Below are positions 15,775 to 51,485 of a stretch of 64,000 bases of DNA, in pieces. Both the position numbers and the translations under genes were made by a program. Below the pieces are notes generated by a model. The model did no database searches. It was not told where the DNA came from and worked only from the letters and a program-made list of their open reading frames with translations. Within the stretch, counting starts at the first letter, position 1. Each line of letters opens with the position of its first letter. This DNA comes from Lactarius indigo (Eukaryota > Basidiomycota > Agaricomycetes > Russulales > Russulaceae), in NCBI GenBank assembly GCA_025766275.1, contig JAFKAC010000037.1, positions 536,801-600,800 of the forward strand, written 5' to 3'.

Positions 15775-17695
15775 TCATCCATCCGAGTCATCATAGCATG
15801 AAGACCGGCGAGAAGCGCCTGTGGCGCAGAGTACTGTCCACAGCGCAGCGCCATGCACGACATGGGTCCGCGCTGAGGACGACTTCGTGCTCCCGGATCC
15901 CGTGCTGGAGCTCGAGGTTGGGCTCGAGCCCGAACCCGTGCCCGTACCAGACCCGGAGCTGTTGCTACCGGAGGCTGTCACCTGGCCTGAGACATCTATC
16001 GGCGAGAAGAAAGGTATTTATGAAAGAGTCCTCTCGTAAAGTGGATCATGGACGTACATTGCTCAAACGTTGGGAGGGAATAGTTGGTCTCCTTGTACGG
16101 CTGCGTCTTGTTCAGCGCGACACCAATGGGGACAATAGCCTAGAATATATGTCAACATTGCTCACGATATCCAATGAGAGAGGAAGAGAGGGTATCGCAC
16201 CGAGAATGCCGCCTTGAGTTGCGGGTACCACTTGATTGCCTCCTGCATCGTAAAGTTGTTCAGCTCGTGGGTGAGCATGATACCTCCGACCGTATCGAAG
16301 GCTCCAGAGGTCAGGTTGCTGATGAACAGGTTGTAGTTATTGTCGACGTCGGTAGCCGTGATGTTGCCCTGTCCAGGCGCGCCAATCGAACGAGTCGTAC
16401 TTCCACACGATCGTCTGCAGGCCAAGCGCAGTGGCGATCGCACGAATGCGGTCCTGCACCCGAAGAACACGTCAATCTCGTGTCAGAGTTGGGAAGATAA
16501 GCACGCGTACATCTACGTCTCCGTAGGGCGGGCGCCAGCAGGTCGGGGTAACCCCAGTGACGAGCTTAATGGCCTTGATCTGGGAGAAACACGTATACAT
16601 ATCAGCATGTACGTAGCGTCGACCACTCCAAGCACTTACAGTATACCACAACTCTGCAAAAGCGTCTTGGCTCTGGAAACGCCGTCACTACGAACGGGCA
16701 TTCAGTAAATTTAATCCATCGTGCATGACTGCTTAGCGCCGAGCGCCGAATAAGAAGCTCACTGTAACGATGTGACCAAGTATCTGCCACGCCACACGAA
16801 CCACAATCAGTTCCGACCGTATGCAAAACACAAGCCAGAACTCACGAGCGCAGATTTCATGCCCATCTGCAATTGCACGCTGCGCCTCCAGCGGCCAGTC
16901 AAGCACGTTACTCCCAATGTAGTACATCGTCGCCTTCTGATTCTGGCTCGAGAGGAAGTTGTAGAACGCATTGTGCGTGCAGTTGGGCCCGTCGTCGAAC
17001 CCGTACCCCATAGTCTTGGGCTCCGGCACAGCTAGACACATCCGACGACAACCCCGTCAACTTCGGCGTCGTACATTGGCGAATCGTCCACCCTGTTCGT
17101 AAAAAGAAGCGTGAATCAGCCGCGGGTTGCGATTTTTGACGGAAGCTTAAAAGTAACCCAGGCGTCAATTCGGCAGCTTCATTCAAGGAAGCTGCCAAGT
17201 TGGCGAGCTAAAGCCGCGCGGCTTCGACGCAGCCATGGGAACAGACTACCAGCCTCGCTATCCCCGCATTGGGCGTCACAGCTGGAAGAAGGGAAACTCA
17301 CAGCAGTCCGGATCGTTCACCGTGTCGTACGTCACGTTAATGGTACTCCCGTTCAGCTGCCCCTTGGGTAGGAATGTTCGTCGGAATGCTCGGCGCGACT
17401 TTGGCCCACAAGGCCTGGCCCTCGGTGTCATTCGCGAGAAGCGTCGCGGGCTGCCATATCGGAGGGAAGGTGTTGACGAACTGGCCCGAGGGAGCGTAGT
17501 AGTACGGCGTGCACTCGAGATTGGGATCTGCGGCGGGAGAGTGGGTGGTAAGAAGGTGGAGGATTGGTGGGTGAGAGGGAGAGGACGCGCACCGGAGATC
17601 TGAGCCTCGGACTGCTCGGAGCTATGGTCCTGAGCGAGGGCAGAGGTCGCGAGAAACACGACGAGGGGGCTAAGCGCCCGCAAGTTGAACAACAT
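15775..17695 (-). pseudogene. Chitin deacetylase (CE4) copy A, frameshifted
   Basis: Secreted polysaccharide deacetylase that would convert chitin to chitosan. It starts at 17695 with signal peptide LRALSPLVVFLATSALA and has the same exon plan as copy B (20638-22365). CE4 motifs are readable: GYGFDDGPNCTHN, HTWSH, CWRPPYGDVD, YDSFDW, GIMLTHELNNF. Relative to copy B it has one extra base near 17365 (before PKGQL), one near 16677 (after MTAF) and one near 16390 (after YDSFDW). The tail after FEQYVSGQVT is a Ser/Gly/Thr-rich linker as in GPI-anchored deacetylases, but a hydrophobic GPI signal is not clear. Called a pseudogene; a sequencing-error explanation for three insertions remains open. Confidence 0.75.
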
Positions 17696-20637: not shown

Positions 20638-22365
20638 TTAGCCCGTGTTCGGGATCGTTACCTGGCCAGAGATGTCTGCCAACGAGAAATGAGGTCTACA
20701 AATAAGTTCTCCCGTAAACATTGGATATGAACGCACACTGCTCAAACGTCGGCAGCTGATAGTTGGATTCCTTGTACGGCTGCGTCTTGTTAAGCGCGAC
20801 CCCAACAGGGACGATAAACTAGTGTAAATGTCAGCATTTTTCCTTGAAATGGATTCGAGGGGAATCGGGAAGAGGACAGTTATCGCACAGAGAAGGTCGA
20901 CTTCAGTCGTGGGTACCACTTGATCGCCTCTTGCATCGTAAAATTGTTCAGTTCGTGCGTGAGCAAGATACCCCCGATCGTGTCGAAGTTGCCCGCGGTC
21001 AGATTATTGACGAACAACCAATAGTTTCCATCGACATCGGCGGGGCCAAAGTTGCCTATCCCGGATTCCCAGTCGAATGAGTCGTACTCCCACATGATCG
21101 TCTGCAGCCCAAGCCCATTGGCGATCGCACGAATGCGGTCCTACAATCGGGGAATACGTTGTTCTCGTGTGTTGGCGTTATGAAGATAAGCACACCTACA
21201 TCTACGTCTCCGTAGGGTGGGCGCCAGCAGGTTGGGGTAAACCCGGTGACGAGCTTGATGGCCTTCATCTAGGGGGAGCACGTATATCAGCACACGTAGC
21301 ATCGATCGCCACAAAGGTAAGACAAGTACTCACAGTGTACCACAACTCCGCGAACGCATCTTCGCTCTGGAACGCCGTCACTACGGCCGGGTACCAGTAA
21401 ATGGGACTTGTCGTACATAGCTACTGAGCCCGAAGAAACGCACTGTAGTTATGTGACCAAGTGTCTGCCACGACAAGCGAGCGACAATCAGTTCCGACGT
21501 CGTTGGAACACAGAAATCACAAGCCGGCACTCACGAGCACAGATCTCGTGCCCATCTGCGATAGCACGCTGAGCCTCTAGTGGCCAGTCAAGCACGTTGC
21601 TCCCAATGTAGTACATCGTTGCCTTCTGATTCTGGCTCGCGAGATAATCGTAGAATCTATTGTGCGTGCAGTTGGGCCCGTCGTCGAACCCGTAACCTAT
21701 CGTCTTGGGCTCCGGTACGCTAGACACATCTGGCGGTAACCCCGCAATCTTCGGCGTCGTGCATTGGCTATCCGTCCACCCTGCCGCGAAACGAGCGTTA
21801 ATTATCCGCGGGTGAAATTTGAGCAGGGAAAGGGCGAAGCTAAAAGCGGCCAGGCGAGAACCTGGCAGTCTCATTCAAGGAAGGAAATTGCCACGACAGT
21901 TGGCGAGCCAAAGCCGCGGACCTTCGCTATCCTCGGATCGGACATGTCAGTTGGAAGAGAAACTTACAACAATCCGGATCGTTGGCCCAATTGTAGGTCA
22001 CGTTGATGGTGCTATCGTAGAGCTGCCCCTTGGGCAAAATATTCGTCGGTATGCTGGACGAGATGTTAGCCCACATGGCCTGTCCCTCAGTGTCGTTCGC
22101 GAGCAGCGTCGCGGGCTGCCATATCGTGGGGAAATTGTTGACAAACTGGCCCGAGGGAGCGTAGTAGTATGGCGTGCACTCGAGATTGGGATCTGCGATT
22201 ACGGACGCAGGAGCGTGACGGGTAAGCAAGGAGAGAAGACTGGTGCGTGGAAGGGAGAGGATGCGCACCAGAGATGTGAGCCTCGGATTGCTCGGAGCTG
22301 TGGTCTTGAGCTAGTGCAGACGCCACGAGAAACGCGAAGAGCCTAAGCGCCTGCAAGTCTAACAT
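20638..22365 (-). CDS. Chitin deacetylase (CE4) copy B, intact
   Basis: Secreted chitin deacetylase of carbohydrate esterase family 4, acting at the cell wall. Nine exons (22269-22365, 21968-22192, 21535-21780, 21444-21464, 21334-21380, 21200-21268, 20889-21140, 20737-20818, 20638-20675) give 358 aa in consistent phase, including a 21-nt exon that carries HTWSHNY. Signal peptide: LQALRLFAFLVASALA. Metal and catalytic motifs are all present: YGFDDGPNCTHN (DD), HTWSH, CWRPPYGDVD, YDSFDW, ILLTHELNNF. The protein ends FEQY-ISGQVTIPNTG, stopping where copy A continues into a Ser/Gly-rich linker. Copy B may therefore be freely secreted rather than anchored. Confidence 0.88.
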
Positions 22366-23198
22366 TGCAAAAGGACTGGGACGTGAAAAAGTCAGAGTCC
22401 CTTTTTGTAGGGTGTGGACAGTAGCTGCGAAACAAGAGAGATAGAGTCGACCCGAGGGGATGTAGGAATAATATATAAACACGATAAGACGTCGGAGGAA
22501 CTTGGTTTCTATGACAAGGCGCGCAACTGATGGCCTCACCCCGGTGCACGCCGTTCGGGCAATCATCTCGTGAAATAACCTGGATACACCTCTTTTGGTA
22601 TCGTTGAGTGCAAAAACGAAGAGTAAGGCTCTTGAAATTGGTACGCCACACCTTTGAAACCTCTTGCAGGATCTAGAACTGCTCGGGTCGTGGCTGCGTG
22701 TATTGTTCTGTTGTCCCAGCGTATAGCCCTTGACTTATTCCCATCCAAGGTTTGTTCTCCAAGTGCGAGTAGCCAACACCCGGACACCCTCGGAGGAGCG
22801 TTCGTATCTCGTTGTGCTCGAGACTTCTAAAAATAACTCTTGAATGCAACCGTATTTAACCTACAAAACAACAACATTATCTTGATCCACGGATTGCCTA
22901 CTTTGTGCTCAGCACGAGATAGCTGTTTCTCCGCAAAGCGCATGTCGCTGAAGGTAAGTCAACCCTACAGTCAACTCGTCGAAATGACGCTTTCGGAGTT
23001 TGAACCGTTGCAAACGAGCAAAGTGGCGTGACGCAAGCATGTCACGTGCCGTGACCACCCATTTGGTCTGAATACTGTATTTGGATATTCGGGGCGACAC
23101 TGGCACAGCAGCCGCGCCACTCGTCTCTTCGTCTTGCTCTTCCCTGGAATCATATCCTCATTCTCATTGCAAGAGCTCACGACGGGCTCTGTTCAAAA

Positions 23199-24284: not shown

Positions 24285-25972
24285 CAGGAAATCGTGGCGA
24301 ACGCGACTCCCCAAGTCGCGTAGGATCGAAGAGTCGAGGTTCAGCTGCCCCTCCAGATAGGAGCACATCTCGTGCTCCATGTGGTTGACCTCCCAGAGAG
24401 AACACCCCTTGATCCACAATACACCAAGACTTGTTCGAGTACGTCGCCGCAAACAATCTTGGAAGCAAACGTAAAGGCAGAAGTAATTGAACGATGACCG
24501 GATGATCCCTTAGCGGGGAGACGCACCTTAAGAGAGGTAGAGGGCAAAGGTGACAAAAGGGTGGAAAGAGCGAGCCCACGATACAGCAAGACTTGTTCGA
24601 GTATGTGTCGTCGTAGATTATCTTCGAAGCAAGTCTATGAAGGAAGAAATAAATAGGCGATGTCCGGATGGTCCCTTAGCGGGGGGACGCACCTTAAGAG
24701 AAGTAGAGGGGGCAAAGGTGATGGAAGGGCGAAGGCGGGTGAAGCGGCAAAAGAATGCTTCTAATGTGATGGAAGGGTGAGCACCAACGCTGCAAGTGGT
24801 AGAGGCGCAAGGGCGGTGGAAAAACGACGGCGGATGAAGCGCACCTTGAGACGTTGTGAATAGAGTCGCGGAAGTGACGGAAAGGTAAAGGAGCGAACCC
24901 TCGATACAGTAGGACTTGTTCGAGTTGTCGTGGATTATCTTCGAAGCAAGCGTGAGTGTAGAAATAAATAGGCAATGTCCGGATGATCCCTAAGTAGGGA
25001 GACGCACCTTAAGATGCAAGAGGTAGAGGGCTCAAAGGTGACAACGGTAAAGGTAGCGGTGTAAGGACGTAAGGCGTAAGAGTCCGGTGAGTTCGAAGGC
25101 GGGGAGAGCGATTCCGCAGGACCGTGTTTGCGAGCGCCAATGGGAGTTCGAACGGGCTGGGACAAGTAGCTAGAAGCGAGAGGGCGAGAGAAGACGAGAA
25201 GAAAGGGAGAAAAAACGATGATATTCAGCAGTGGAGAGTTCGCCTTTTAAGTACACGAGAACCGTATCCTAATGCTTAGAATAGGTAGGAGTAAGGTGGT
25301 GAAATAGGATGAAAGAAATGGGGGCATGAGCGACACGAGGCGACATGAGGCGATCGAAAATGGAGACAAAACGCGGGATCGGGGCGTAAAGTACGAGTGA
25401 GGGGCGAAACAAAATATAGCCGAGATGGCGTGGCAGAGGCGTTCTACGAGTGAAGCGATGGTGAAAGGAATGAATGGGAAGAGCATGAAGTCGACGGGGA
25501 TGTATGTGCTGGTGCAACACCGGGGTAACACGAGAGCGCGGGCCCAGTGCCCGAGGCCTCATGAAGCACGCCTTGAGACGTTGCAAGATATAGAGGCTGT
25601 AAAGGTCACGAAAGGGTGAGCGCTAATATGATAGAAAGACGAAGATGGGAAACATACCTTGAGATGTTGCGAGAAGGCGACAGAAAGGTGAAGGACGATA
25701 CAGCAAGACTTGTTCAAGTAGGTGTCGTCACAGATTACCTTCAAAGCAAGCATGAAAGCAGAAATAAATAGACGATGTCCGGATGGTCCCTTAGCAGGGA
25801 AACGCACCTTGACATGTAAGATGTAGAGCAGGGACGAGTGCGGTGGGGAACACAGGCTGGTTGAGGGGGTAAAGTGTCGCAAACGTGAGTAGTGGAAGGC
25901 GGCGCAGGAGAAGGGGCGACATCCCAACAAGCGAGGAGGGGAAAAGAAGCGAGCACACGGTTTGGAGGACAA
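24285..25972 (-). pseudogene. Array of captured cyclin (Pho80/PCL-like) gene fragments
   Basis: On the minus strand a segment of a fungal cyclin box recurs in partial copies. The most complete, about 24285-24545, reads LKVRLPAKGSSGHR, SAFTFASKI and then the exon containing EVNHMEHEMCSYLEGQLNLD. Further pieces with the LKxRFP...GHRLFIS...NKSxCIV pattern lie near 24580-24720, 24890-25045 and 25640-25840. Short LYxxQRLK pieces occur near 24840 and 25565. Frames are interrupted, so these are not a working gene. The KVR-PAKGPSGHR and NKSWCIV-type phrases are typical of basidiomycete PCL-like cyclins; the parent gene is not in the window. Confidence 0.65.
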
Positions 25973-25991: not shown

Positions 25992-28852
25992 CTAATACAG
26001 TGGATTTACGTATTCTATTGGGAGCGAGGTTGGGGGGTTTGGAAATGGCCATAGGGCCAGTATACGGGGTATGGTACTTGATACGGGGTCTGCATATACA
26101 TCCCGGGGGGGGTAAGCCGAGCGAACAGGGTACCACGGGCTCGAAGATGCCAGGGGTGCGGATGGGGCTAGGGTACCTCTGTGCGCGTGCTGTGGTTCAA
26201 AGGATTGCGGGAGAGAGTTTCCCGGTGCACTGGGACTGGCGGATGCGTATGCTCCGCCGTTTTGCGCTGTGTACCATGCGCGAGGCGCCAAGGCAGGTGG
26301 GGGAACCGCTGAAGAAGGCGGGTACGATTGGAAGGGGGTGAGTGACGGGGGGACAGCTGGGGCTGGGGTCGTGCAGCCGTGGCCGTGTTCCTGGGGCTGT
26401 GAGAGAGAAGGCCCCGCACCATTGGCTGCAGCGCGTGCGCGTGCTTGTGCTCGGGCATTTTGGGCAGCAGTTTGCGCGTCGGGGGCAGCGCGTTTGCCAG
26501 AGTTGACCCCGCCACTGTAGGGATCCGTGATCTTCATGCGTTGTCGTTTGCGATTGAGATCCCCAATGCATTCTGTCGCCGAGGGTTCTGGGGAGGATGT
26601 GGTGGTAGCACGAGGTCTCTTCTTCCGCCGCTGTACTCCCATTCGCTGGGCGGTCTCGGTCCACGTGTGTTGATTCGGCGGGATGTCTTCTTTGTCCAGG
26701 AGTGGGCTTTCCGAAGAGTGTGAGTTTCTGACAACAGCAGTCAGGTGTTCCTGAACGCTGTGAAGACTCCGGACAGTGCCCGGAGACTTGGGCGCACCAT
26801 CGCTTAGAAATTCTTTGGAGACAGTGATTACATTCTCCAAAATTGTCGCAGCTGTCGCATCGCTGCACGCATCCGCTGAGCACTCTGATTCAACCGGCTG
26901 CGCTGTCTTAGGGGCTGCGCCGTCGCCTGCTGCCAGCTCCACCAGCTGATCGCCATCTCCAAAAAAATGGGCGACCGCAGTGACGTGTTTGCACAGCCGG
27001 ACCCTGGGCCAGTCCGGACAGTCACAAGACCGTTCGCTAAGCTTAACTAGATAGTTACGCGACGTATCCGCTGCCGATTGCACAGAATAGCGATTGTCGC
27101 CTAGGCCGCGGATGGAGTCGGCATTTATTTCCGGGGTTCTAGTAAGAATTTCTTTGCGACGCTTCTCGGCCAGGTTTGAACCACTGAAACCAACCTCTTG
27201 GCCGTCATGGCGGGCCTGGTAGTGCGGGAGCATATCGATTACGAGCGTGTGGACGAGATGATCGGCGCGCCGATTTCGCTTCCCCTCAAGCCACATTGAT
27301 TTGAGTACATGATGGTAGCTAGATAAACATAGATTTGAGCGATCCCTCTTATCCCTTGGAGCGATAAGCCTACTTACGATTCGATTAGCATGTTTGTGTT
27401 GCCCTCTTGGAAGATCGGCCGATCTTTCCTGTATGTCCCTGACCAAAGTGGTACAATACCCATCCAATTCGCCTTGAGATATTTTACAAGGCTTTGAGGG
27501 ACCGAATCACTGGTTTGCATCTCTTCCCACCAAGAATCAAATTCAATTTGATCGGATGTTCTGACCCACGCGCGGATGCGTTCCCAAAGTTCCAGGAATT
27601 CTTCCGTGCACAAGTACATCTGGATAGCACGGAGCATGTGCCACCAGCACAGTAGCACCGTGGCCCCTGGGTACGCGGCTGAGATTGCATTCATTTGCGC
27701 TTTGTCGCGGTCAGTCATAATAATCGCAGGTGACACATCCGGGCTCCGCACTTTTACAAATTCAAGAAAATATTTGATTGTCGCTTCCGTCCCGTTTGAC
27801 GACAACATCCAAGCGACAGGGACGCCTGTCAAGCGGAATTGAATACAGTCCATAAACAGAAAATGCCAAAAAGCGTACCCTGCCCCCACAGATCTCTCAC
27901 AAGCAGGGTAAACAGCTGGAGCCCTGCATATTGAGTGGTGTTGTGGGTTGCATCAATAGACACAAAATTGCTGCTGAGCACGCGAAAGCGGTCCAACTGG
28001 AATTTGGTCTGGATACATAGGACAAAAGAATCTGGGGATAATCCAGATTCAGGGGGAGGGGGATCTTTCCGGTCCTTCAAGACACACTCAGCACCACTGT
28101 CCTGAAGCCGGAGGACCCAAAGGCAAAGCGAGATCGCGTCATTATCGTCAAGGCGGATTTCCACGTCCTCCACAATCCGATGGTAACAGCTAATGTCGCG
28201 CATTGTTATGTAGTAATCGCGATCGGTCCGCTTGCAGGATTCACGTACGCGTTTTAGCTGAATTATAGTCAGCTCGGCAAAAAAAACAAATTCGTTTGTG
28301 ACTCACCACTATCTTAGAATCGATGCCAGTGTGGACCATGTCCATGACAAGGTCCCTGATTTTGGCTGATAGTCTGGTGAATCGCAGATTATCGTCGCCA
28401 AGTGGGTGATCGTGCTGGTCCTCATACTTCCCAAGCATCACGTCTGTTTGCGGGTACCGCTTAACAGTAAGACAGCATTGACAGCCTGTCTTCTTCGATG
28501 GGATCTTCCTTTCCCATTGGTGCTTGTTTTGGTAATTCCGCTTCCCGCCCGTGAATTCATGTGAGCACCGAAGCACGCGACGCTCCCGCCAGTCCGATGA
28601 ATCTGATTGGAACATTTGACTCACACGAAATTCTATTGTCTTCTCCGATTCCTCGGCTGCAAGCCAAGCCAGGAATTCCTCCTCATTTGCCCATTCCAAT
28701 GTCATCCCGCCGTTCTCGCGGTCAAATGCCATGCTTCCCCTTCGAGGTTTTGTAAGGGCACGTTTGGCGCGGCGCGCCTCTTCTCTGGGACCGTCGTAAG
28801 CGAGGCTCGTTTGAGTAATGGCAGGGCCTGTGGGAATTTCAAAAGTTGGCAT
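25992..28852 (-). CDS. MULE transposase with FAR1-like and SWIM domains
   Basis: DDE transposase of the Mutator superfamily. Exons 28307-28852, 27879-28257, 27378-27825 and 25992-27318 join in phase to 899 aa with no stop. The N-terminal third has a Cys/His cluster typical of FAR1/WRKY-GCM DNA-binding regions (CSHEFTGGKRN, KKTGCQCCLTVKRYP, DQHDHPLGDDN). The catalytic core includes NFVSIDATHNT (first Asp), GVPVAWMLSSNGTEA, IIMTDRDKAQMNAI (second Asp), the CWWH motif, and a downstream Glu among FLELWERIR. A SWIM zinc finger follows (CDCPDWPRVRLCKH). The C-terminus is a long Pro/Ser-rich region. Completeness suggests recent activity. Confidence 0.88.
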
Positions 28853-29093
28853 TCTGTGGGGATTGAGAGAGGGTATTGTTTGTCCCTCCCTTCCCTCCCT
28901 ACCGCGCACTCCAAACCGATACACAGACACGCGCTATTTACGCGCTATTTATGCGCTATTTACCTTTATTTTATATCATGTATTTTACACTAGTTTCTAT
29001 TATAGTATTTACTGTGAAAATAAAATATGAAAGAGGAAAGAAAGTTCGAAAAAAAGCGGAGTTTGAAACTGAGTTGCGGAGAAACGGCAAAAG

Positions 29094-29123: not shown

Positions 29124-30591
29124 TCAAAGACTCCAGCTGACAATTCGCGGTTCAAATCTGAGCTTATATTTTGGACTGAGTTTGAAACCGTCATTTTTTC
29201 AATACAGGTCATCGATGATCATCTGGCGCTCATATGCAGTCGCGCAAGCCTTGTCCTGTCTAGTGTACAACATTGTGTCCTTGTCTCAACTTACCTGTCC
29301 CACCCGACCGTCGCCCACTCCATCCATCCCTTCCGAACAACCTCATATAGCCTCACATTCTGACGGCACTTCTGAAATTGTGGTCGTTGTCCCTGCTTCG
29401 CTCGCATGTACGCCAATATGTCAAATAACCTCCAATGTGCTAACATTTGTGGTGTAGCTCCTTTGTCCGACATGTCTTAGTGCATACACCCGGGTCATGT
29501 TCAACAGTATGCTTCCCCAGTCGCCAGCAGTGCCGGGAAATGATCTGGACGATGCCATGTGGGTAATTCTTTTGCAGGAAGTCAGCATATATCCACTAAT
29601 CTGATGTTTTTCTCATAGGCGAACCCATTGTATGCGCCTACATGAGTTCGCGTTTGGTCCCAAAGCCATCGCTCCAAGTCCTCACCAAGTTTGAGGCTTT
29701 TTTGAAGTTCGGTATGAGTATTTTGTGAGATGCCGAAAATGTACTGAAGTTAAACTAGAAATATGAGGCCTTCAGCAAACAAATGAAGTCAGCTGCCCAT
29801 GACTCCCGTATCGCCTCCCCAGCCCGAGCAACACCCTTTGTGTCAAATGGCAACAGCAACATATTTTGATTGGTAAGTCTACCCCTGTTCTCGCGTTTCC
29901 TTATATCTCACGGAAACCAGCAATCCCTTGTGGTTTTTTAGGGGCGGCCTCCATATCTGACATTGCGCGGATTTGAGCGGGTGGTTACATAGGAGGCGTG
30001 GAGGGTTCAGACTCGGATGGGCTCAGATAGTTCAGATGGCATCTGTAAAATGGTGTATATCTATAAATGTCCTTGCATAAACGTCCTTGCATCCGAAAAT
30101 GTCGGTGCAGTGCGGCAGACTTCGATTGAGCACCGATTAAAGCCGAGAATGATTCAGATTTGACGCAAAGGGACTCTGATATCATCTGAAAAGTGGACAA
30201 GATCCGACAAAATACTGGGGTGGTCTGAGTAATCTGACCCGCTCAGATTGACGCAGACGAACTCAGCCAGACCAGACGTGCACTCTCTCTATAGTAATGC
30301 TCCCCCCTCGAGTCCCCTCTATCAACGAAAGCCAGTTAGTGAAACCACGACAACAACGTTCAAAGACCGACTAAGTCATAAACAAAATATGTGGCCCAAC
30401 TACAGAATTCTCGGATCACCCAACATTAGATCTACTTGTCCTTGTCATGCTCCCCATCTCTACCAAGAAAATAGACTTGTACGGGATACTGCTTCCCAAA
30501 AATACTCAAATCAATTATTTGCACGTGTTTTGACGGAGGACTGAAATGGAACTAAAAGCTTAGAGAGAAATTATCTTGATAGGTGCAAGAA
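29124..30591. other. Spacer with a possible short inverted-repeat element
   Basis: No gene supported. At about 29967-30256 the two ends share TTGAGCGGGT/CTGAGCGGGT and TTCAGATG(G/A)(C/T)ATC words in inverted orientation, as in a MITE of about 290 bp. The relation to the neighbouring MULE is not shown. A phrase DDAMW-like near 29550 hints at an F-box relic but is too short. Confidence 0.3.
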
Positions 30592-33500
30592 TCAACGAAC
30601 CATATCAGTAGCCATAATAAAGCTTGCAAAAAACTCAACCGAGTGCTCTTGAGGTGACAAAAGGTGTAGTTGAATTTTGGAATCAATATTTGCCTCGTGA
30701 TAGTCCAGCTCCGCGTGGGTTAAAGCTGACTCAGGTGACATGTTTGAGAGGCGTAAAAAAGTGGCGTGCTTCAAGATGATGATAACAGCTTCCACAAAGG
30801 TTAAATACACCCTACAAACGATAAAGTGAAATACCAAAGATGAGATGATAACCGCCAAGACTGGTGGGGGAGAGCTAGAGAGATGAATATCATGAGCCAG
30901 GGAGAAATGACCGTAATAAAAAGAGAACACATTTTGAATGGTAGGCAGTGACAAAATCTGCGTTACCTTGTGGAGAAGTGAGAGGTTGTTTGATCAAACA
31001 GACAGAGAGCACTTACAAGCTGGAGAATAAAAGGCGGACAGACATCATTAGCAGACTGGAAAGAAAAGCATGCACGCACGCGCTGGTAGGCCAGAGAAGA
31101 GTACGATCAGCGGAGTGTCAACCCAGGACAGGTGTAACCAGAAAGCATGAAATACAGCAAGGCAAACAGCCACTCACGTTCTAAAGGGCCAAGACAAATG
31201 TCCTTGACAGTCCTGAGACACAGTGAAGCATGGTATCCACTTACAAACTGGAGACGTGGGGACACCCATCAGCATTGATGTCGAAACACCAGTGAGAGAA
31301 TGACTTACTTTCTGGGGAGGCAAGAACAGGCATTGTCAGTCGCCTTGAAACACAGCTACTAGCTATGGCATAGACTCACGTCCTGGAGAGACAAGGACGA
31401 GTATCAACAGCAGCCTTGAAATGCAGTCAGCCACGACAGCAACTCACTCTCTGAAGAGCCAAGGACGGGCATCATAAGCAGCCCTGAAACATAAGGGGCC
31501 CCAGCAACTTACATCCTGGGGAGCAAAGGACAGGCATCGCCGTCAGCTGCCTTAAAATGTAGCAAACTACAGCATCCACTCACTTCCTGGGAAAGCGAGG
31601 ACAGGCATCACCATAATGTTTCAACGGCAACGAGTCATGGAAGCCACTCACTCTCTGGAGAGTTGAGAGCAGGTGTTTTCAGCGGCCTTGAAATATATCG
31701 AGCCGCAGTAATCCACTCACTCTCTGGAGTGGAGGACAGGCGTCATCAGCAACTTTGAAATGTTGTAAGCTAAGCCACAGAAACCACTCACATACTGGGG
31801 AGCCGAGGACAGGCATATTCAGCCAGCTCGAAATGAAGCAAGCGATGGCCGCTTACATCCTGGACAGCCAAGGATAGGCATCGTCAGCACGCTCAAAATG
31901 AAGCAAGTAAGAGTGGCCACTCACTTTCTGGAGAACCGACAACAGGCGCCATCAGAATGATCAAAGAACAGCGGGTCACGGCAGTCACTTACTTTCTGGG
32001 GAGGTAAGGACAGACATCATCAGCACCGTTGAAATACAGCAAGCCACAGCAGTCACTCACTTTCTGGGGAGTCAAGGATAGGCAGCGTCAGCAGATTAGA
32101 GGTGCAACAAGCCCCAATAGCCACTCACATCCTGGAGAATAAAGGACGGGTGTTGTCAGCATGCTTGAAACGCAACGAGTCACAGTGGCCACTCACTCCC
32201 TGGAGACGTGAGGACAGGAATCATCAGAGGCCTAAAACTCAGTGAATCACGGTAGCCACGCACATCCTGGAGAGATGAGGATAGTCACCATCAGTTTGAA
32301 GCGCAGAAAACCACTGTTGCTACTCACCAACTGAAGAGGCGGGGACAGGCTTTGTCAGCAGCCTCGAATGCTGTGAGCCACGACAGCTACTTACTCCCTG
32401 AAGAGCCGAGTGTAGCATCATCAGAAGGCTTGATTACGGCAAGTCATAGCAACTACTCACATACTGAAGAGGGGCAGGCGTCCTCAGAAAGCTTGAAGCA
32501 CAGCAAGCTACTGTAGCTACTCACCAACTGGAGAGCCGAGGACAGGCGTAGTCAGAAGGCTTGAAATCCAGCAAGCCAGGGTGGCCACTCACCCTCTGAA
32601 GAGCCAAGGATAGGAACCATTAGCACACGTCAATGTAGCGAACAGAAATCACTCACAAACTGAAGAACCAAGGACAAACACCATCAGAAAGTTTGAAACA
32701 CAGCGAACCACAGTAGCCACGAACATACTGGAGAGAGAAGGACACGTGTAGTCAGAAGGCTTGAAGTTCAGCGAGACACAGCGACCACTCACAGACTGGA
32801 GAGCCAAGGATAGGCATTGTCAGCAGCCTTGAAAACCAGTGAGCTACTTCAGCCGCTCACAAACTGGAGAGTTGAGGGTGGGCATCGTCAGAAAGCTCGA
32901 AACGCAGCACTGGAAGCCACTCACATCCTGGAGAGCCCAGGACGGGGAGTCAAGGACAGGCGTTGTCAACACTCTTGAAACGCAGTGAGCTACTGCAGCC
33001 ACTCACGAACTGGAAAGCCAAGGACAGGGGTCGTCAGCAAGTTCGAAATGCGGCGAATCACTGCAGCCACACACATCCTGGAGAGCCAAGGGTAGGTGTT
33101 GTCAGCAAGCTTGAAACGTAGCGAGCCATGGTAGCCACTCACATCCTGAAGATGCGGGGACAGGTGTCGTTAGCATATTGAAACGCAGTGAGTCACAGCA
33201 GTCACTCACTCCCTAGAGGTGAGAAGCGTCATCAGTAGCCTTGAAATGTCGCAACCCATTGCAGCCACTCACCAACTGGAGAGGTGAGCACAGACATCGT
33301 CAGCTGCCTTGAAGCACAGCAAATCATGGAAGCCACTAACTTTCTGGGGGGGGGGCAAGGACAAGTTTTGTGAGACGACTCGAAACGCAGCAAGTCACAG
33401 TAGCCACTCACCCTCTGAAGAGCCGAGGACAGGTATCGTCAGCAGGCCCAAAACGTAGCGAGCCACAGAAGTACTCACACCCTTGAGAGCCGAGGACAGC

Positions 33501-35402
33501 CACCATCAGAAGTTTCAAAATGTAGCGGCACATTGCAGCTACTCACCAACTGGAGAGTCGAGGACAGGGATCGTCAGCAGCCTTGATACGCAGCAAGCCA
33601 CGGTAGCCACTCACGTCCTGGGAAGCCGAGGACAGGCATTGTCAGATGTTCAACATGCAACGGTAATCACTTACATCCTGGAGAGCCAAAAACATCCATT
33701 TTCAGCACGTTTGAAACGCGACGGGCCACAGTGGCCACTCACCCCCTGAAGAGGGGAGGACAGGAGTCGTCAGAAGGCATAAAACGCAGTGGGTCATGAT
33801 AGCCACTCACATCCTGGGGAGCCAAGGAGAGACAATGTCAGCGAGCTCGAAACGCAGCAAGCGCTAGCTACTCACTCCCTGGGGAAATAGGGACAAGCAT
33901 CGTCAGAAGGCTTGAAATGTGCGAGGAACTACAGTCACACTTACTCTCTGGAAAGGCAAGGACATGTATCGTCAGCAGGCATAAAACACAGCGAGTCACA
34001 GCAGCCACTCACATCCTGGTGAGGCGAGCACGAGTATGGTCAGAAGGCTTGAAATGCAGTGAGCCTATGGGAGCCGCTCACATCCTGGAGAGGTAGGGAC
34101 AGGCGTCATGAGCAACCTTGAAACTTTGCGAGCCACAACAACCACCCACCAACTGGAGAGCAGGGCGCCAGCAAGGTTACGTCAGTCAATCTGAAAGGCA
34201 TGAGTCAGGGCCGACACTCACATGCTAGAAGTTAGGCGGTATCAGACATCATGAGGTAAGTACCACAAATCAAGACTTTATAAACACTTGCCCAGATATA
34301 TGGAAACGAAATAAGGCATTCCTCAACTATAACCTTATCTTCAAACCTACCATCGGGATGGATACTGCAATGTTCGATGAGATCGTCGCTTACTTCGCCC
34401 ATTCAACTGGTGGACTCACCGGCTCAAAGCTGTTTTGACACTTAATTCTAAATTGCTTCTCTGTACGGCTAAGAGCATCAATGAAACGATATCCCCATGC
34501 AGCGATGCAGCTGTCTTTTCGATGAGATCATTGCAGCGCGTATTTTTCTTGTGCATTTCTGCCCAAGAACGTCAGCATGTAATCTTGGTATGTCTACGGG
34601 CCCACTTTCTAATCGCACAAACCTAACGTCACCACCAAGAGGACGCAGGTAGTGCTCTTGAAATTGCTTCTCCATCACGTCAAGTACATTGTCATCTGGG
34701 CTTCCGAAATCCTCCACATGGATTTGGACATTTCTCCGGAATTGATCAAACTTCGTAAACACCACGATGACAGGGACTTGGAATTATTCAGTTACCGTCA
34801 ATACGGGTCACGAATATCTGTAATGACGCACCATTCCGGTCGGGACAGATGTCCTGGAAAAATTTGAGATCAAGCTGAGGTCGTTGGTTGTCCATTGGGA
34901 CGCAGTACCTCAAAACCCAACCGTCAGTTGTCGTAATCGTGAGCACTCGAGAGTCCAAACCATATTGCATGCAATCTAGAATACAGCCGCGTTTCTCGAC
35001 ACTTGCGTCGAATGAATGTCTTTAAAACCTCAAGTTCCTCCGTACTACCAGACTCGATTCCGCGAGAGTCGTGAAACACATAGCCTTTATGATTGGAGAA
35101 CACAAGTTCGTCATCGATCCTGTGCTCGCCGCGCTGGCTCCTTGTTTAGTGGAAACCAATGCAAAATACTATTTTCACTGACATCCATGGACGGGTTAAG
35201 TTTAACCTAGTCGACGGCGAGATCAGACTCGTAGTTAAAAGGTTGGATCACGTACTTTCTCCAATCCCCGGAATATCCGGTAAAAAATAGGGCTGTCTGT
35301 GGTCTCACAGACTCTTTGTAGAATGGAAGTCTTTCCAGCATTTGCCCTTCCTATGATAAGGACTCGGAACCGGAACTTCGGATTGGGTCGTTGTGTATCC
35401 AT
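30592..35402 (-). CDS. P-loop G protein whose gene contains a giant intron array
   Basis: Predicted GTPase of the single-domain G proteins expanded in mushrooms. Exons 35256-35402, 35183-35206 (24 nt), 34961-35133, 34832-34908, 34606-34776, 34420-34558 and one from 34364 down to about 34264-34277 are consistent in phase. Motifs: G1 IIGRANAGKTS (residues 17-26), G3 VFHDSRG, G4 VVFTKFD, then CNDLIEKTAASLHGD and FPYIWASVYK. About 48 intron units separated by 3-nt triplets follow (31017-34224). The terminal exon from about 30957-30966 to 30592 encodes a hydrophobic segment (VLAVIISSLVFHFIVC, VYLTFVEAVIIIL) and a helical tail, suggesting membrane association. The donor entering the array is uncertain: GTACTT after 34264 gives the wrong phase, while GTCTTG after 34277 gives phase 0. 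Substrate and role unknown. Confidence 0.75.
31017..34224 (-). repeat. Tandem array of ~48 introns separated by 3-nt micro-exons
   Basis: Period 68 nt (most steps 63-72; one of 98, one of 82). Read on the minus strand, each unit is GTGAGTGGC ... TGCTGAC or TTCTGAC ... TGTCCTTGGCTCTCCAG, i.e. donor, branch site, pyrimidine tract and acceptor, about 65 nt in all. Between acceptor and next donor lie exactly three bases. Examples of triplet positions with minus-strand content: 34222 CAT, 34150 TTG, 34082 GAT, 34013 GAT, 33945 AGA, 33876 GGA, 33743 GGG, 33615 GAC, 33412 AGG, 33341 AAA, 32793 TCT, 32725 TAT, 31584 GAA, 31178 AAC, 31080 CGC, 31017 CTT. Among 48: GAT 11, TTG 5, AAA 5, GGA 4, AGA 4, TTT 3, TAT 3, GAC 2, AGG 2, nine others once each. 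Confidence 0.9.
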
Positions 35403-35511
35403 GGGACGAAGTTTGATTGAGCGAGAGTTGCCGATCGACTCAATCCCGTTCAAGTTCGCGATCGGTAGTTCACACGGCTTACTGTACCTTCCTTATTTAT
35501 CGTCACTGGAC
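35403..35511. promoter_or_regulatory. Divergent promoter between G-protein gene and ERCC1
   Basis: The two ATGs point away from each other and are 109 bp apart, so both promoters and 5' UTRs must share or overlap this stretch. No specific element identified. Confidence 0.55.
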
Positions 35512-41322: not shown

Positions 41323-44085
41323 ATGAAATTGTCACTCCTTTCAATTCTCACGTTCGTCGCGCTCGCGCACGCCAATTCCCATGCAGCGCGCTCTTCATCC
41401 CTCAAAAAGGCGCATACCAAGTCAGCACATTCCTCGTCCGCCAGCAAAAGTAAGCAATTCAAACCATCCACGGGTGTGGACGATGCTTATAACCCGCAAT
41501 TCAGCTGTGATTGCCCAGATGTTTGAGTGGACCTGGGACAGCGTTGCTGCGGAGTGTACTACGTTTTTGGGACCAGCAGGCTACGCTTTTGTTCAAGGTG
41601 AGCATTGCAAGCCTATTGGTGTGCCCGCGCGTCAGGTATTGATTATTCTTTAGTAAGCCCCGCACAGGAGCACGTTCAGGGCCCAGAGTGGTGGACCGAT
41701 TACCAACCGGTTTCATACACCCTTACGTCCAAGCGCGGCACGGAAGCCCAGTACGCGAATATGATCAGCACTTGCCATGCGGCTGGTGTAGGGGTTATTG
41801 CTGGTTCGTCCATAAGAAAGCTTTTCAGCCTTGTGGTGACTCATTTATTTATCCCAGATACTATATGGAACCACATGTCCCAGGAAAATTCTGGAACTGG
41901 TGTTGGAGGAAGCAGTACGTTACTGCTCACTTCGCGATCACTCTTGTTGAGTTGTAAACTGTTTGCGACAGGCTTCACCCACTATAACTACCCTGGCATC
42001 TACCAGTACCAAGATTTCCATCATTGTGGCCGCCAGCCAGATGACAACATCGTTAATTATAATAACGAAACCGAAGTATTGGACTTGCCAGCTCAATGGC
42101 CTCGCAGAGTGCGTATCGGCTTTCGAGGTCATTGTTGATGTGCTGAATTTGTCGTGCGGGACAGCCTGGCAACGGATACAGACTACGTTCGCCAGCAGGC
42201 TTGCTGCGTACACAAATGATCTAATCTCTTTGGGTGTTGACGGTCTACGGTTGGATGCGTCTAAGCGTATGCACTGGATTTCCACGTTTTGGAAAGTTTA
42301 AGTTGACCGTATGTGCGCACAGATATAAACCCCAATGACATCGCCAATATTTTAACTAGATTGACTACCCGTCCTTATATCACTCAGGAGGTGGGGTTCT
42401 GCTCATCACATGTCGGACTGCTGTTTACCGAAAACGTAGGTTATATATGGTGCAGGGGAACCAGTAACGCCAGCTTTATACACCGGGAATGGCGACGTGC
42501 AAGAGTAGGATTGTTTTGTACTCATCTGGCCTCGGGGCTAATCTCTCCTTGTTTTTTAACTTAGGTTCCGTTATACTTATACAATGAAGGATGCGTTCCT
42601 TACTAGCGGCCTGTCATCGCTGCAAGACCTTGATAACCGAGGCTGGGTGGCAGGATCAGGTGCGAACGTATTTGTCAGTAACCACGATACCGAGCGGGTA
42701 CGACCGATCTATCACGTCTCGCTCTCCATTGGTGTTTACATTCCACGTAGAACAAGGCCTCTCTCAATGCTTACTCACCTTCAAATGCATACACCTTGGC
42801 AACTATCTTCTCCCTGTATTGGCCATCATCCCTACCTGTTCGAGAATTGCTCTTGATGTAATTGCTCTTGTATGTAGCGCCCACCCTTACGGCAGACCAT
42901 CCGTCCTCTCAAGCTACACCAACTTCAACAACGACGCGGGGGCTCCTAACAGCGGTACAGCCCGACTTTTCGGTCAATGAAACCTCCTCGATATTGACTG
43001 TTTCGCTAGGTACGGGAACTTGCACTGGCAACGCCGGAACGAACGGGTGGTACGCATGAGTCAATCATCGCGAGGTGAAATACGTTCTGAGCGCGAATGA
43101 TCGTTGTTCCTTTGCAGGTTTTGCCAACACCGCTGGCAGGCTATTGCCGGAATGGTCGGATTCCGGAACCAAGTCGGCAGCGCGCCGCTCTTAGGCTGGG
43201 CCTCCCCGTCGTCCCAGCGTATCGCCTTTTCCCGTGGTACGAATCTCGCGCGTTACCTCTCTTCTCTCTACCTCTCACACGCACGGAGTACAGGCTCGCT
43301 CGGCTTCGTCGCGATCAACAACGCGGACAATGAATGGAGCGCGACATTTACGACGGGCCTACCCGCCGGATCGTACTGTAACGTCATCGACGGTATGTCC
43401 ATTGCTGGGGTGTGTACTGGGACTGCGTACGTGGGACCTCATTCGGGCGATACAGGGAAAGAAATGACTAACACGTCACGTGTTCTTTTTGTGCAGTTTT
43501 ACGATCAATAAGGACGGCAGTTTGGTTGCCACCATTGGCGTGCGCCAGGCAATCGCCGTGCATGTGGGCGCGTTAGGAAGCGGAACGATCGTGCCAAAGG
43601 TAGCGCAGCAGGTGCCAGTGATGTTCTACGAGAACGCGACGACCATATATGGCGATGTAGGCAATTCTTCATTTTCGTCGTGTGCGCCTTGCCCATTGCT
43701 ATTTTTTTCCAACAGAATATTTTCGTCGTGGGGAGCGCACCGCAACTTGGCAACTGGGACCCGTCTAACGCAGTGGGTCTCCTCGGGGTCTATGTAGTTC
43801 TGGTCGCTGATAACGTCACGTCCGCACAGATACCGCTCGATCCGACCAACTACCCGGTGTGGGCTGCGACGGTGTACCTTCCCTCAAACACCCCATTCCA
43901 GTACAAGTTCATCCGTAAACAATCCAACGGCACTGTTCGTCCTTTTTCCCTATTCTCTCTACACCCGCGCGATGAAGTACTGAGCCTGATGGATTGACGA
44001 ACAGATTGTGTGGGAGTCGGATCCCAATAGGCAGGACACAACACCGGCTTCAGGAACACAATCAGTCGTGACATGCTGGCGCTGA
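41323..44085 (+). pseudogene. Alpha-amylase GH13 with CBM20, copy A, frame breaks
   Basis: Secreted starch-degrading enzyme. Signal peptide LSLLSILTFVALAHA. Exons match copy [40 protein letters not shown] (region I), GLRLDASKH (region II, nucleophile Asp), TQEV (region III, acid Glu), FVSNHDTER (region IV). The C-terminus has a CBM20 starch-binding module (VPVMFYENATTIYGDN, SAPQLGNWDPSNA, YKFIRKQSNGT) and ends SVVTCWR. Against copy C it has an extra base at about 42078 (GAAGTATTGG versus GAAGTATGG) and another near 42196 (CAGCAGGCTTGC versus CATCAGCTTGC). All introns keep GT-AG except the one before TGSLGFVAINN, whose acceptor is unclear. Possibly functional if the insertions are errors. Confidence 0.75.
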
Positions 44086-44782
44086 TAACATATCTAAAAC
44101 AATTCCGGCACATGCATATAGCATGCTTGTGCTCGTCTTCATAGCCTTTTGTTGATTTATTAGTTATTTTGGAGATACCCATAACGTGGCTTGTCGTTTG
44201 TTGATGCTGACACTGTGTAGTAAACATAGTGAGCACTGGCAGCATTTGATCTTGAGATGCCGTCGCTGTTCTTGCTTGGCAGTACATTGTACTTGGCCGT
44301 ATGCCACGAAGTTATAATGTCCGAGTCTGTTCCTTCCTGCCATCAACTACAGTATGTAAGCACCTCCGATGATAATTAATACGACATGAGGGTCAAGTGG
44401 AGCGTTAGAGTTGGGCATGGCAGTTGGCATGGCTTGATGGCAACCTTGGGTATACCTGTAGTATAAGGTTATAAGCAAGTCGAAATTATTAACAAAAGGA
44501 AAAGCTTGTGAATTAACTTACCTTATGTAAAATATGTATTATAAGTCAAATGATTATTATAAGGCCGAATCCGTCCGGAATTTGGCAACCACAAACCAAT
44601 CACATCTCCAGGTTGCGTCTGCACCGCATGGAACATGGGGGCAACTCGCCAGCTACAGCATTCTGGAAAGCCAGATCTATCTGGGGGCTGTGATCTCGAT
44701 TCTTCATTTTGAGACTGGCATCAGCCAGCCTGGCGACCCGAACGAGCCCATTTAATACCCTTAATTTTGGTCTCTGAACACG
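44086..44782. other. Intergenic between amylase A and B
   Basis: No gene supported. Should contain the amylase A terminator and amylase B promoter. Confidence 0.45.
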
Positions 44783-47560
44783 ATGTTCTGCTCAAATTGT
44801 TCCCTTGCTCCAATCCTCTCGTTCATCGCCCTCGCGTACCCTAGGCGACATACAGCACGCTCCATGTTCGAGAGTAAAGGTGGGCAAGATCTGTCCGTCT
44901 GCATAAGCTGAAGAGGAAACTGACAAATTGAACTCGCCTCCCAGCCGTGATTGCCCAGATGCTTCGAATGGAACTGGACATGCGTCGCGGACGGAGTGCA
45001 CTGATTTCCTTGGCCCAGCCGGCTACGGATTCGTTCAAGGTGAGCATTTGAGACTTATCGCTTGCGTGTCGGGTGCTGACCGTCCCTCAGTGAGCCCTGC
45101 TCAGGAGCACGTCCAGGGCCCTCCAATGGTGGACAGATTACCAGCCCGTCTCGTACACCCTCACGTCCAAGCGCGGCACCCGGGAGCAGTACGAGAACAT
45201 GATCCACACCTGCCACGCAGCCGGCAGTTGGGGTCATTGCTGGTTCAGTCGAGAATATAATGACCCTGTCCTCGTCACGACCCCCTCCTCAGATACTGTA
45301 TGGAACCACATGTCTTCGCAGGATTCTGGGAAGGGTATTGTGGGAAGCGGTGCGTGGGTCGCTCTACTGTGCGATGATCGCCCTTCATTGGGTTCTAAAC
45401 TGCACCCTGTTTGGCAACTCTCAGACTTCCCCCGCTACGACTATCCCGGCATATACAAGGGCCAAGATTTTCACCATTGCGGCCGCGAGCCGAAATAACA
45501 CCATCGTCGACTATGACAACAAAGTCGAGGTGTGGACGTGCGAACTCGATGGACTTGCTGAGTACGTGTCTGAGTTCGAGGTCCATCTCTTATGACCATG
45601 TTGATGTGTCGCTGCACAAGCTTGCCAACGGAGACGGACTACGTTCGCGGGCGGCTTGCTGAGTACACGTAACGATCTTATCTCTTTGGGAGTCGATGGT
45701 CTGCGGTTGGATGCAGCCAAGCGTGCGCGACGGATCTCCTCGCGTTCTGAGTTTTACACTTGATGCAATACGCTTACAGATATGGACCCTGATGACATCA
45801 CCGATATCTTGTCAAGATTGACGAGCCAGCCTTACGTTACACAGGAGGTGAGTTTCAGTTTACAGATTCCTGTGATGGCAGTCTCTGATTGTTAGACTGC
45901 TGTTAAATAGATTATTTGGGGTGAGGAGCAACCTGTCACGCCGGATTTGTACACAGGAAACGGCAACGTGCAAGAGTAGGACTATCCAAATTCGTCCTGG
46001 TCTCGCAACTCATCTCCTCACTTGGTAGGTTTCGCTACACTTCTGCCTTGAGGGATGCGTTCCTCGGAATCGACGATGAGATCTCCTCGTTGGAGGACCT
46101 CGATAGCCGAGGCTGGGTGGCAGGGTCCAGTGCGAATGCGTTTGTCAGCAATCACGATACCGAGCGGGTACGACCAAACGATCTAATCTATCGTGCCTCG
46201 TCTTTTGTAACGTTGACACTGCACGTAGAACAAGGATTTCACTGAACGTGTACTCGCCTTCGAACGCGTACACCTTGGCCACCATCTTCTCCCTGTAAGG
46301 ACCCTCGTCCATATATACCCAAGAGTTGTTCCTGACGTAATTCACTCGCATACAGCGCCCATCCTTATGGCAGGACTTCAGTCCTGTCGAGCTACAGCAA
46401 CTTTTTCGACACGGATGCTGGAGCTCCCAACTCTGGTACGACCCATATTTCTCTTGGAATCGGACACACTCTCAACCCTCGGGCTCTCCTCCCAGGTGTG
46501 GGGAGCTGCCATGGCGAGCACGGTGTAGATGGGTGGTAAGCGCCACGCAGGCTCGCAGTCGTCGTAGCTTGACAACTTGAATATTGAATCGTCATCCTTT
46601 TGCAGGCTCTGCCAACACTGCTGGCCGGCTATTTCCGGCATGGTCGGATTCCGGAACCAGGTCGGCAGAGCACCGGTCACGAGATGGGTTTCCCCGTCGT
46701 CCCAGCGAATTGCTTTTGCACGTGGTGCGCACCTCAAAACCTTACTTCCTTGGTAACTCACGTACAGGAAACACAGGCTCGGACGGCTTCGTCGCGATCA
46801 ACCACGAGGACAGCGCGTGGAGCACGACATTCATGACGGGCCTTCCCGGCGGGTCATATTGCAACGTCATCGACGGCTCGTCGTCCCCCGAAGGACACGT
46901 GCACCGGGGCCGCGTACGTTTCGTTTCCGCTTCTCCTCCAAATTCGCAGAATGACTTTCGATATAGTCTTTCTATTGGTTTCGATGGCAGCCTAGCCGTC
47001 ACCATTGGCGCGCACCAGGCGATCGCGGTACACACGGCTGCGTTGGGCAACGGGACGAGCGTACTGAAAACGGCGGAGCTGGTTCCGGTGTTGTTCGAGG
47101 AGTACGCAACGACCACTTTTGGAGAGGTGCGCACCCCCCCTCCCCCTGGGTCTCGTCGCCCACCACTGATCGTTGCGGCAGAACGTTTTCGTCATGGGTA
47201 GCGTGCCGGGGCTCGGAAACTGGGATCCGAACAGCGCGGTATGTGTTCCCTTGGACATGAGGGCCTGTTCTGGTAGCTGATGACGCCGCGCGCGCGCAGG
47301 TACCACTTGATTCCATCAAGTACCCCATTTGGACCGCGACGGCGTACCTTCCCCCAAACAGCGAGTTCGAGTTTTCGTTCATTCGCAAAAAGTCGGACGG
47401 CACCGTGAGTCACCCTTCCTTTCCCTGTACGTGTGCGGATGCAACGATGTGCTGACGCAATGGATGTGGTACGGACAGATTATCTTTTCGGAGTCGGGTC
47501 GGCCTAGCTTTGACATAACCCTAGTGTCGGGAGTAGTGTTGTTCGCTGGTCGATGCAAAA
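44783..47560 (+). pseudogene. Alpha-amylase copy B, many +1 frame breaks
   Basis: Signal-like start (FCSNCSLAPILSFIALAYP) and the same exon plan as copy D. Readable pieces include [54 protein letters not shown] and the CBM20 strand AIAVHTAALGNGT. Compared with copy D, single extra bases occur near 44962 (ATGCTTCGAATGG), about 44985, 45127 (CCAATGGTGG), 45226 (GGCAGTTGG) and 46893 (GAAGGACACG). The 3' end is degraded around 47500-47560. The most damaged of the four copies. Confidence 0.7.

Positions 47561-48600: not shown

Positions 48601-51485
<2,885 letters not shown>

What the first reader, a model, noticed from the sequence alone, without database searches (positions are those of the whole stretch)
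31017..34263. Forty-eight consecutive introns separated by 3-nt micro-exons inside one gene
On the minus strand a 68-nt unit repeats about 48 times. Each unit is a complete fungal intron: GTGAGT-type donor, CTGAC branch site about 22 nt before the end, pyrimidine tract, CAG. Acceptor and next donor are exactly three bases apart in all 48 junctions, even when unit length varies. The array lies between recognisable exons of a G-protein gene, in the sense orientation. If spliced as drawn, the transcript would assemble about 48 codons from 48 separate 3-nt exons. I know of no comparable described structure. Single micro-exons and intron-derived repeats (introners) are known, but not a run like this.
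Basis: partly seen in the sequence, partly recalled or inferred. Interest (0 to 1): 0.96.

Follow-up and report, generated by a model that had tools for sequence, protein, structure and literature searches.

The report
One-codon-per-exon arrays in mushroom genes
A gene of a mushroom (likely a milk cap) contains 48 three-base pieces, each exactly one codon, separated by short intron-like units that are likely spliced out one by one, and at least 19 sister genes show the same layout, which would make it a protein segment spelled one exon per codon.

Summary
The window gene (minus strand, 35402-30592) reads as 8 ordinary exons plus 48 triplets, each lying exactly between an AG and a GT; spliced as drawn it gives an intact 440-residue GTPase-like protein. 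The preceding exon ends on a codon boundary, so each triplet is one codon. I read 20 such arrays in this genome (almost certainly Lactarius indigo), all in paralogs of one gene family; 34 of 49 terminal-exon loci showed an array, 15 were not seen either way. In 984 triplets there is no stop codon; within-array shuffles of 18 arrays gave 97 on average. Donor, acceptor and branch site are nearly invariant while the codon is, on average, the most variable part. Codons ending in AG, which would spoil the acceptor, are avoided. Relatives on short JGI contigs, probably transcripts, read 38-60 variable residues in one frame where the array lies. Best reading: each unit is a real intron and the mRNA carries a hypervariable segment of single-codon exons. 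Untested: RNA from this species, the order of splicing, the function. Listings of ten literature searches showed nothing comparable.

The parts
35256..35402 (-). exon 1, start codon and P-loop (GRANAGKT)
   Evidence: homologous Lactarius proteins
35183..35206 (-). exon 2 (24 nt)
34961..35133 (-). exon 3 (HDSRGIESG)
   Evidence: homologs
34832..34908 (-). exon 4
   Evidence: homologs
34606..34776 (-). exon 5 (VVFTKFD)
   Evidence: homologs
34420..34558 (-). exon 6
   Evidence: homologs
34292..34364 (-). exon 7, ends ...FPYIW on a codon boundary; GC donor
30967..34291 (-). micro-exon array: 49 introns around 48 three-nt exons (first triplet 34224-34222, last 31019-31017)
30592..30966 (-). terminal exon, 124 codons and stop, with a hydrophobic stretch
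   Evidence: 49 loci in own genome

Best explanation
The window gene is a GTPase-like gene whose middle part has 48 three-nt pieces, each a whole codon in phase 0, separated by intron-like units of about 65 nt that are likely removed one at a time by the ordinary spliceosome, so that the mRNA would carry a 48-codon segment assembled from 48 exons. Shown by sequence: the junctions, the phase, the absence of stops, the conserved donor, branch and acceptor, and the same layout in 19 further arrays that I read. Inferred: each unit is recognised by intron definition. A 3-nt exon is too short for factors to sit on its acceptor and its donor at once, so neighbouring introns should leave in turn, each excision lengthening the exon for the next. 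Inferred: because every exon is one whole codon, gain, loss or exchange of a unit, or skipping of exons, never shifts the frame, so unequal exchange between near-identical introns can rewrite the segment codon by codon. Inferred and weakest: the segment is the specificity part of a membrane-associated GTPase family under pressure to diversify, perhaps in recognition of self or of microbes.
For: Phase 0 before the array at 18 of 20 loci, not found at 2; phase-0 terminal exon at 11 of the 12 loci where its start was found. 0 stops in 984 triplets of 20 arrays; column shuffles of 18 arrays (two near-identical copies dropped) give 97 +/- 7, minimum 74 in 1,000; stops in the other phases 37 and 131 for the 933 core triplets. 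Mean non-consensus frequency over 18 arrays: codon 0.43-0.62, donor 0-0.06, acceptor 0-0.03, rest of intron 0.03-0.28. CTRAY branch A at one fixed distance in 812 of 946 introns. K/Q/E codons end in AG in 13 of 226 micro-exons, against 29 of 56 in this gene's ordinary exons. JGI proteins P0005, P0088, P0121, P0123 on contigs of 1,265-3,017 nt read FPYIW/FPYLW + 38-60 variable residues + terminal exon in one frame; 38-60 unspliced units would need about 2.6-4 kb. P0063 reads four codons after FPYIW and then one translated intron unit. A distant paralog (L056, chained with relaxed settings) has 84 triplets without a stop, spelling a hydrophobic Cys-rich stretch that 0 of 5,000 shuffles reach.
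Against: No RNA of this species was seen. For the JGI proteins I saw neither DNA nor source, so 'transcript' is inferred from uninterrupted frames and short contigs. The window array is the most diverged of the 18 (rest of intron 0.28, from 16 units), single intron columns there vary more than the codon, and 10 of its 49 donors are neither GTGAGT nor GTAAGT. At L018 no phase-0 acceptor was found for the terminal exon, at 5 loci a second AG in another phase lies 4 nt further on, and 8 of 20 loci gave no start motif. One L. tabidus model (P0004) joins FPYIW to the terminal exon through only two residues. The encoded segments show little helical periodicity (2 of 24 above z 2), and 35 of 60 residues of the segment are below pLDDT 50 in the one model. 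A role in recognition is untested.
Confidence: 0.87

Rival explanations
1. The array is one long intron: the spliceosome joins exon 7 to the terminal exon and all 48 triplets are thrown away. The units would be an intronic minisatellite grown from a duplicated intron.
For: The frame is also open with all triplets skipped. A predicted L. tabidus protein, P0004, has only two residues in between. TRF sees parts of the array as diverged 68-nt tandem repeats.
Against: Nothing would then forbid stops (0 of 984), keep donors, acceptors and branch sites, hold the triplet at 3 nt while unit length changes, or avoid AG-ending codons. JGI proteins carry 38-60 residues at the site.
Confidence: 0.06
2. The triplets are alternative exons: each transcript includes a different subset, always in frame, so one gene yields many protein variants.
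For: All exons are one codon and the skipped form is open. Near-identical donors and acceptors make neighbour skipping plausible. Two of the JGI proteins appear to keep an array intron (P0063, P0091).
Against: Nothing observed shows two subsets from one gene; intron retention is not exon choice. It is an addition to the best explanation, not a contradiction of it.
Confidence: 0.25
3. The array acts at RNA level, as a host of intron-encoded RNAs or as a splicing-based switch, and the triplets are only filler.
For: Tandem intron arrays that host snoRNAs exist: 48 tandem introns carry SNORD115 (PMC11608373, start of abstract).
Against: No Rfam family matches either strand of 30500-35500 at E <= 1. 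The window's introns are conserved mainly at splice signals. It does not explain absent stops and the variation peaking at the codon.
Confidence: 0.03

Closest known systems
Ultra-small single micro-exons, e.g. the 1-nt exon of Fusarium CYP621A (PMC12940212, start of abstract and passages seen) and the micro-exons of human RPS24, one of them 3 bp (PMC12686416 and PMC11162997, search listing and abstract starts)
   Same: An exon of 1-3 nt between ordinary introns; in Fusarium the authors report RNA evidence of accurate splicing
   Different: One, or in RPS24 three, micro-exons per gene; no run of dozens, no one-codon rule, no hypervariability
SNHG14 host gene, 48 tandem introns carrying SNORD115 (PMC11608373, start of abstract)
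   Same: Long tandem array of homologous introns
   Different: As I recall, exons there are non-coding and longer and the product is intronic RNA; no codon-sized exons
Introner-like elements in fungi (PMC4457414, listing and abstract start)
   Same: Near-identical introns multiplied in a fungal genome
   Different: As I recall, introners are dispersed over many genes; here every array read lies at one place in one gene family, head to tail
High-internal-conservation repeats of fungal NLRs (het-d/het-e type; PMC4986451, abstract start and passages)
   Same: Homogenised repeats whose variable positions diversify, repeat-number differences, exchange within and between family members
   Different: There the repeat is protein (WD, ANK, TPR) in the coding frame; here the homogenised part is intron and the variable part a single codon per repeat
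Schistosome micro-exon genes (recalled; not tested)
   Same: Genes built from many small exons whose length is a multiple of three
   Different: Exons there are recalled as up to about 36 nt and not in homologous intron arrays

Membership tests
spliceosomal U2-type intron (each unit) | GT-AG ends, branch site, pyrimidine-rich 3' part | tested here: met
   +5G 1.00, branch region 0.90-0.95 over 946 introns (GT or GC and AG were required in the chaining); window 48 GT + 1 GC donors
spliceosomal U2-type intron (each unit) | removed in RNA | not testable with these tools
   no RNA of the species; indirect support from JGI proteins
protein-coding micro-exons | in phase with flanking exons, no stops | tested here: met
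   L018 is the one exception on the downstream side
neutral minisatellite | divergence spread evenly over the unit | tested here: not met
   codon 0.43-0.62 against donor 0-0.06
introner-like elements | dispersed insertion into many unrelated genes | tested here: not met
   all 20 arrays read lie in paralogs of one gene; the 14 further loci lie upstream of the same terminal exon; listings were truncated
snoRNA host array | intron-encoded known small RNA | tested here: not met
   no Rfam match at E <= 1
fungal NLR with high internal repeat conservation | NACHT/NB-ARC plus WD/ANK/TPR repeats | tested here: not met
   Pfam scan lists only weak GTP- or ATP-binding families
P-loop GTPase | G1, G3 and G4 motifs and G-domain fold | tested here: inconclusive
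   GRANAGKT, DSRG, TKFD read by eye; MMR_HSR1 at E 7.6e-4 but 20 bits, below its cut-off of 21.9; the fold of relative P0005 matches dynamin-like, YsxC and G-alpha chains only weakly

The most novel reading that the evidence does not exclude
The array is a codon-cassette diversifier: near-identical introns serve as homology arms around single codons, so recombination rewrites a receptor-like protein segment codon by codon, never breaking the frame, and the spliceosome then assembles the text one codon at a time. Two gene copies with 98.6-99.2% identical flanks already carry largely different codon strings.
Probability: 0.45. Interest if true: 0.98.

Novelty: categorically new. Interest (0 to 1): 0.95.

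Why it matters
If true, the smallest useful exon, one codon, is used serially dozens of times per transcript, which tests how a spliceosome handles exons too short for both flanking sites to be occupied. It gives a route by which introns serve protein evolution: they isolate single codons so these can be gained, lost and swapped without frameshift. It also means that many automated models of this family in Lactarius stop at the array or run into intron sequence, so a hypervariable protein region has been overlooked.

Tried and rejected
Regular helix or coiled coil: the 100-degree hydrophobic moment exceeded z 2 in 2 of 24 segments and the 170-degree one in 3 of 24; rejected as a general rule. 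Codon tied to its intron: same-codon units had more similar downstream intron halves in 9 of 20 arrays (p <= 0.05) and upstream halves in 6 of 19 valid ones (L009 gave no value), with differences of a few per cent; units partly travel as blocks, but this does not explain the turnover. Known RNA families: none. Fold class: weak G-domain-like matches only. A second protein search drawn from P0005 residues 255-435 found only P0005 itself. A first free-length test used a stricter acceptor and a faulty bound for L009; one search replaced it. A first search for terminal exons found a frame at 7 of 20 loci; one search replaced it. Literature: the listings of 10 searches showed no array of micro-exons; 'Lactarius' with 'microexon' gave 0 papers; preprints and most subscription journals are not held. 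Passages of two papers were read.
Full report
Observation. The minus strand from 34291 to 30967 contains 48 triplets that each lie exactly between an AG and a GT. The first intron (34291-34225) has a GC donor; the last (31016-30967) is 50 nt. Donors are GTGAGT in 31 and GTAAGT in 8 of 49; acceptors are CAG in 44, TAG in 3, AAG in 2. If the array stayed unspliced, the frame would hit a stop after 57 nt, and its 3,325 nt are not a multiple of three; of the 49 introns only one could be kept alone without a stop or a frameshift.

Gene. Exons 1-7 (35402-34292) and the terminal exon (30966-30592) were placed by splice sites and homology. Joined with the 48 triplets they give one open frame of 440 residues. 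The first part has GTPase motifs (GRANAGKT, DSRG, TKFD, read by eye). Pfam gives MMR_HSR1 at E 7.6e-4, just below its cut-off. Exon 7 ends ...FPYIW on a codon boundary, so each triplet is a whole codon; the terminal exon is in phase 0 and holds a hydrophobic stretch. The gene is also open if all triplets are skipped.

Organism. Proteins named Lactarius indigo lie on contigs of 600,800, 2,105,802 and 473,168 bases, the exact lengths of contigs C223 (the window's), C2 and C231. I therefore take the genome as L. indigo, an inference. Taxonomy: Russulales, Russulaceae.

Family. A search with 301 bases of the array found 35 places; the junction pattern gave 1,509 hits with up to 2 mismatches against 3 for the reversed control. 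I fetched 17 loci and one distant relative, and two overlapping 3-kb loci gave one more; with the window that is 20 arrays. The flanks of 18 of them were compared and match each other on both sides wherever enough sequence was held; L028 and L056 were tied to the family by exon 7 and the terminal exon. The terminal exon protein has 67 matches, which I merge into 49 loci. At 34 of these an array is seen upstream on the same strand (counted by eye from the listings); for the other 15 the truncated listings do not tell.

Coding test. With exon length left free, 934 of 989 strong donors have their acceptor 3 nt upstream, 40 have none in range, 15 lie at other distances. Chains scored without regard to the triplet gave 933 core triplets in 20 arrays: 0 stops in phase 0, 37 and 131 in the other phases. 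Extending L056 with relaxed settings gives 984 triplets and still 0 stops. Independence of the three positions predicts 57 TAA, 31 TGA and 22 TAG. Shuffling columns within each of 18 arrays (L016 and L024 dropped as near copies) gave 97.1 +/- 6.9 stops, minimum 74 in 1,000 shuffles. Units within an array are related, so this is no strict probability. Exon 7 ended in phase 0 at 18 of 20 loci; at L009 it lay outside the stretch, and at L021 it was not found within 800 nt of the chain. The start motif of the terminal exon was found at 12 of 20 loci; at 11 of these an acceptor lies in phase 0 exactly 15 nt before it, with a second AG in another phase 4 nt further on at 5 loci; at L018 only an acceptor in another phase was found; at 8 loci the motif was not found in 700 nt.

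Two constraints at once. Across 18 arrays the codon positions are on average non-consensus in 0.43-0.62 of units, the donor hexamer in 0-0.06, the acceptor in 0-0.03, the rest of the intron in 0.03-0.28; in a few arrays, the window's among them, single intron columns vary more than the codon. In the window array GT, AG and +5G are 1.00 in the 46 units tested, while other intron columns fall to 0.41 (the triplets were defined by AG and GT, so for those four bases the informative fact is that no unit is missing from the run). Lys, Gln and Glu are written AAA, CAA, GAA: 13 of 226 end in AG, against 29 of 56 in the window gene's ordinary exons. An AG just before the donor would offer a second acceptor that deletes the codon, so this bias fits splicing.

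Transcript-like evidence. JGI proteins P0005, P0088, P0121 and P0123 sit on contigs of 3,017, 1,547, 1,265 and 1,497 nt and read through positions where the window gene has introns. After FPYIW or FPYLW they carry 60, 46, 39 and 38 variable residues (limits set by eye) and then the terminal exon. An unspliced array of that size would need about 2.6-4 kb. P0063 (1,124-nt contig) continues FPYIW-FFFN and then VIGCCALLCFKPVDGTCHWISS, a translated intron unit (70% identity over 20 residues, E 2e-9); its second residue implies a changed donor, which could explain its retention (inference). P0067 reads 11 residues and then VSGCNGLI, by eye only. That these contigs are transcripts is inferred; I saw no DNA.

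Other species. Of 115 protein tails tested, 25 match translated array introns of L. indigo (reversed tails 0): 2 JGI proteins and 23 NCBI models, from L. tabidus, L. vividus, L. sanguifluus, L. hatsudake, L. hengduanensis, L. pseudohatsudake and L. quietus (species). So the array is likely widespread in Lactarius, and many models stop there or run into it. P0004 of L. tabidus has only two residues at the site, and P0060 of Galerina about 33; their gene structures are unknown to me.

Hypervariability. L010 and L013 have 98.6% and 99.2% identical flanks. Compared unit by unit, 30 of 43 codons differ (0.465 of codon bases, against 0.063 of intron bases), 22 of them with 20 identical flanking bases. 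The middle of the codon string is hardly more alike than shuffled (longest common subsequence 17, shuffles 15.6 +/- 0.9, maximum 19). L009 and L011 (97.2% downstream flank) differ at 49 of 71 in register (0.512 against 0.107), but their middle is more alike than any of 500 shuffles (32 against a maximum of 30). Both pairs lie about 31 kb apart on C218 and C259 in opposite contig orientation, which fits two haplotypes, untested. In contrast L014/L016 differ at 1 of 29 and L022/L024 at 5 of 64 codons. Each array uses 8-20 distinct codons, mostly one or two per amino acid, which speaks for copying of units rather than scattered point mutation. How the codon text turns over in some pairs remains unexplained.

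What the segment may be. It is rich in E, R, L, F, D, G and S. In the model of P0005, 35 of its 60 residues are below pLDDT 50; it lies between the G-domain part and later helices (mean pLDDT 67). L056 spells KEFSVLLVCCLCCFCPICIPCCLCNC; its most hydrophobic 19-residue window (2.75) is reached by 0 of 5,000 shuffles, so there the order of the micro-exons matters for the protein. My functional proposal, a diversifying recognition segment, rests on analogy with fungal NLR repeats (PMC4986451, passages).

Verdict. What is missing is RNA.

Noticed in passing
L056 (G000:C1:1970800-1977800): Distant paralog with an 84-triplet array that spells a hydrophobic Cys-rich stretch (VLLVCCLCCFCPICIPCCLCNC), unlike the other arrays read.
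   Followed up: yes
L010 versus L013, L009 versus L011: Near-identical gene copies with largely different codon strings; the process that changes codons but hardly the introns is unexplained.
   Followed up: partly
contigs C223 and C231 of G000: 13 and 14 of the 49 terminal-exon loci lie on these two contigs, a strong clustering of the family.
   Followed up: no
P0040, P0045 (L. indigo proteins): Some family members carry roughly 140-150 extra residues before the GTPase part (ETRPTSDLELVFKD...), a domain not identified.
   Followed up: no
window 25992-28930: ORFs on the minus strand that resemble a MULE-type transposase with a SWIM-like Cys/His motif (by eye, not searched).
   Followed up: no
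window 16733-17947 and 21488-22566: Two similar ORF groups resembling polysaccharide deacetylases, apparently a duplication (by eye).
   Followed up: no
window 41605-47201 and 50003-51113: Repeated alpha-amylase-like fragments, several copies (by eye).
   Followed up: no
window 24414-24721 and 62230-62450: Two short tandem duplications, periods 166 and 109 nt.
   Followed up: no
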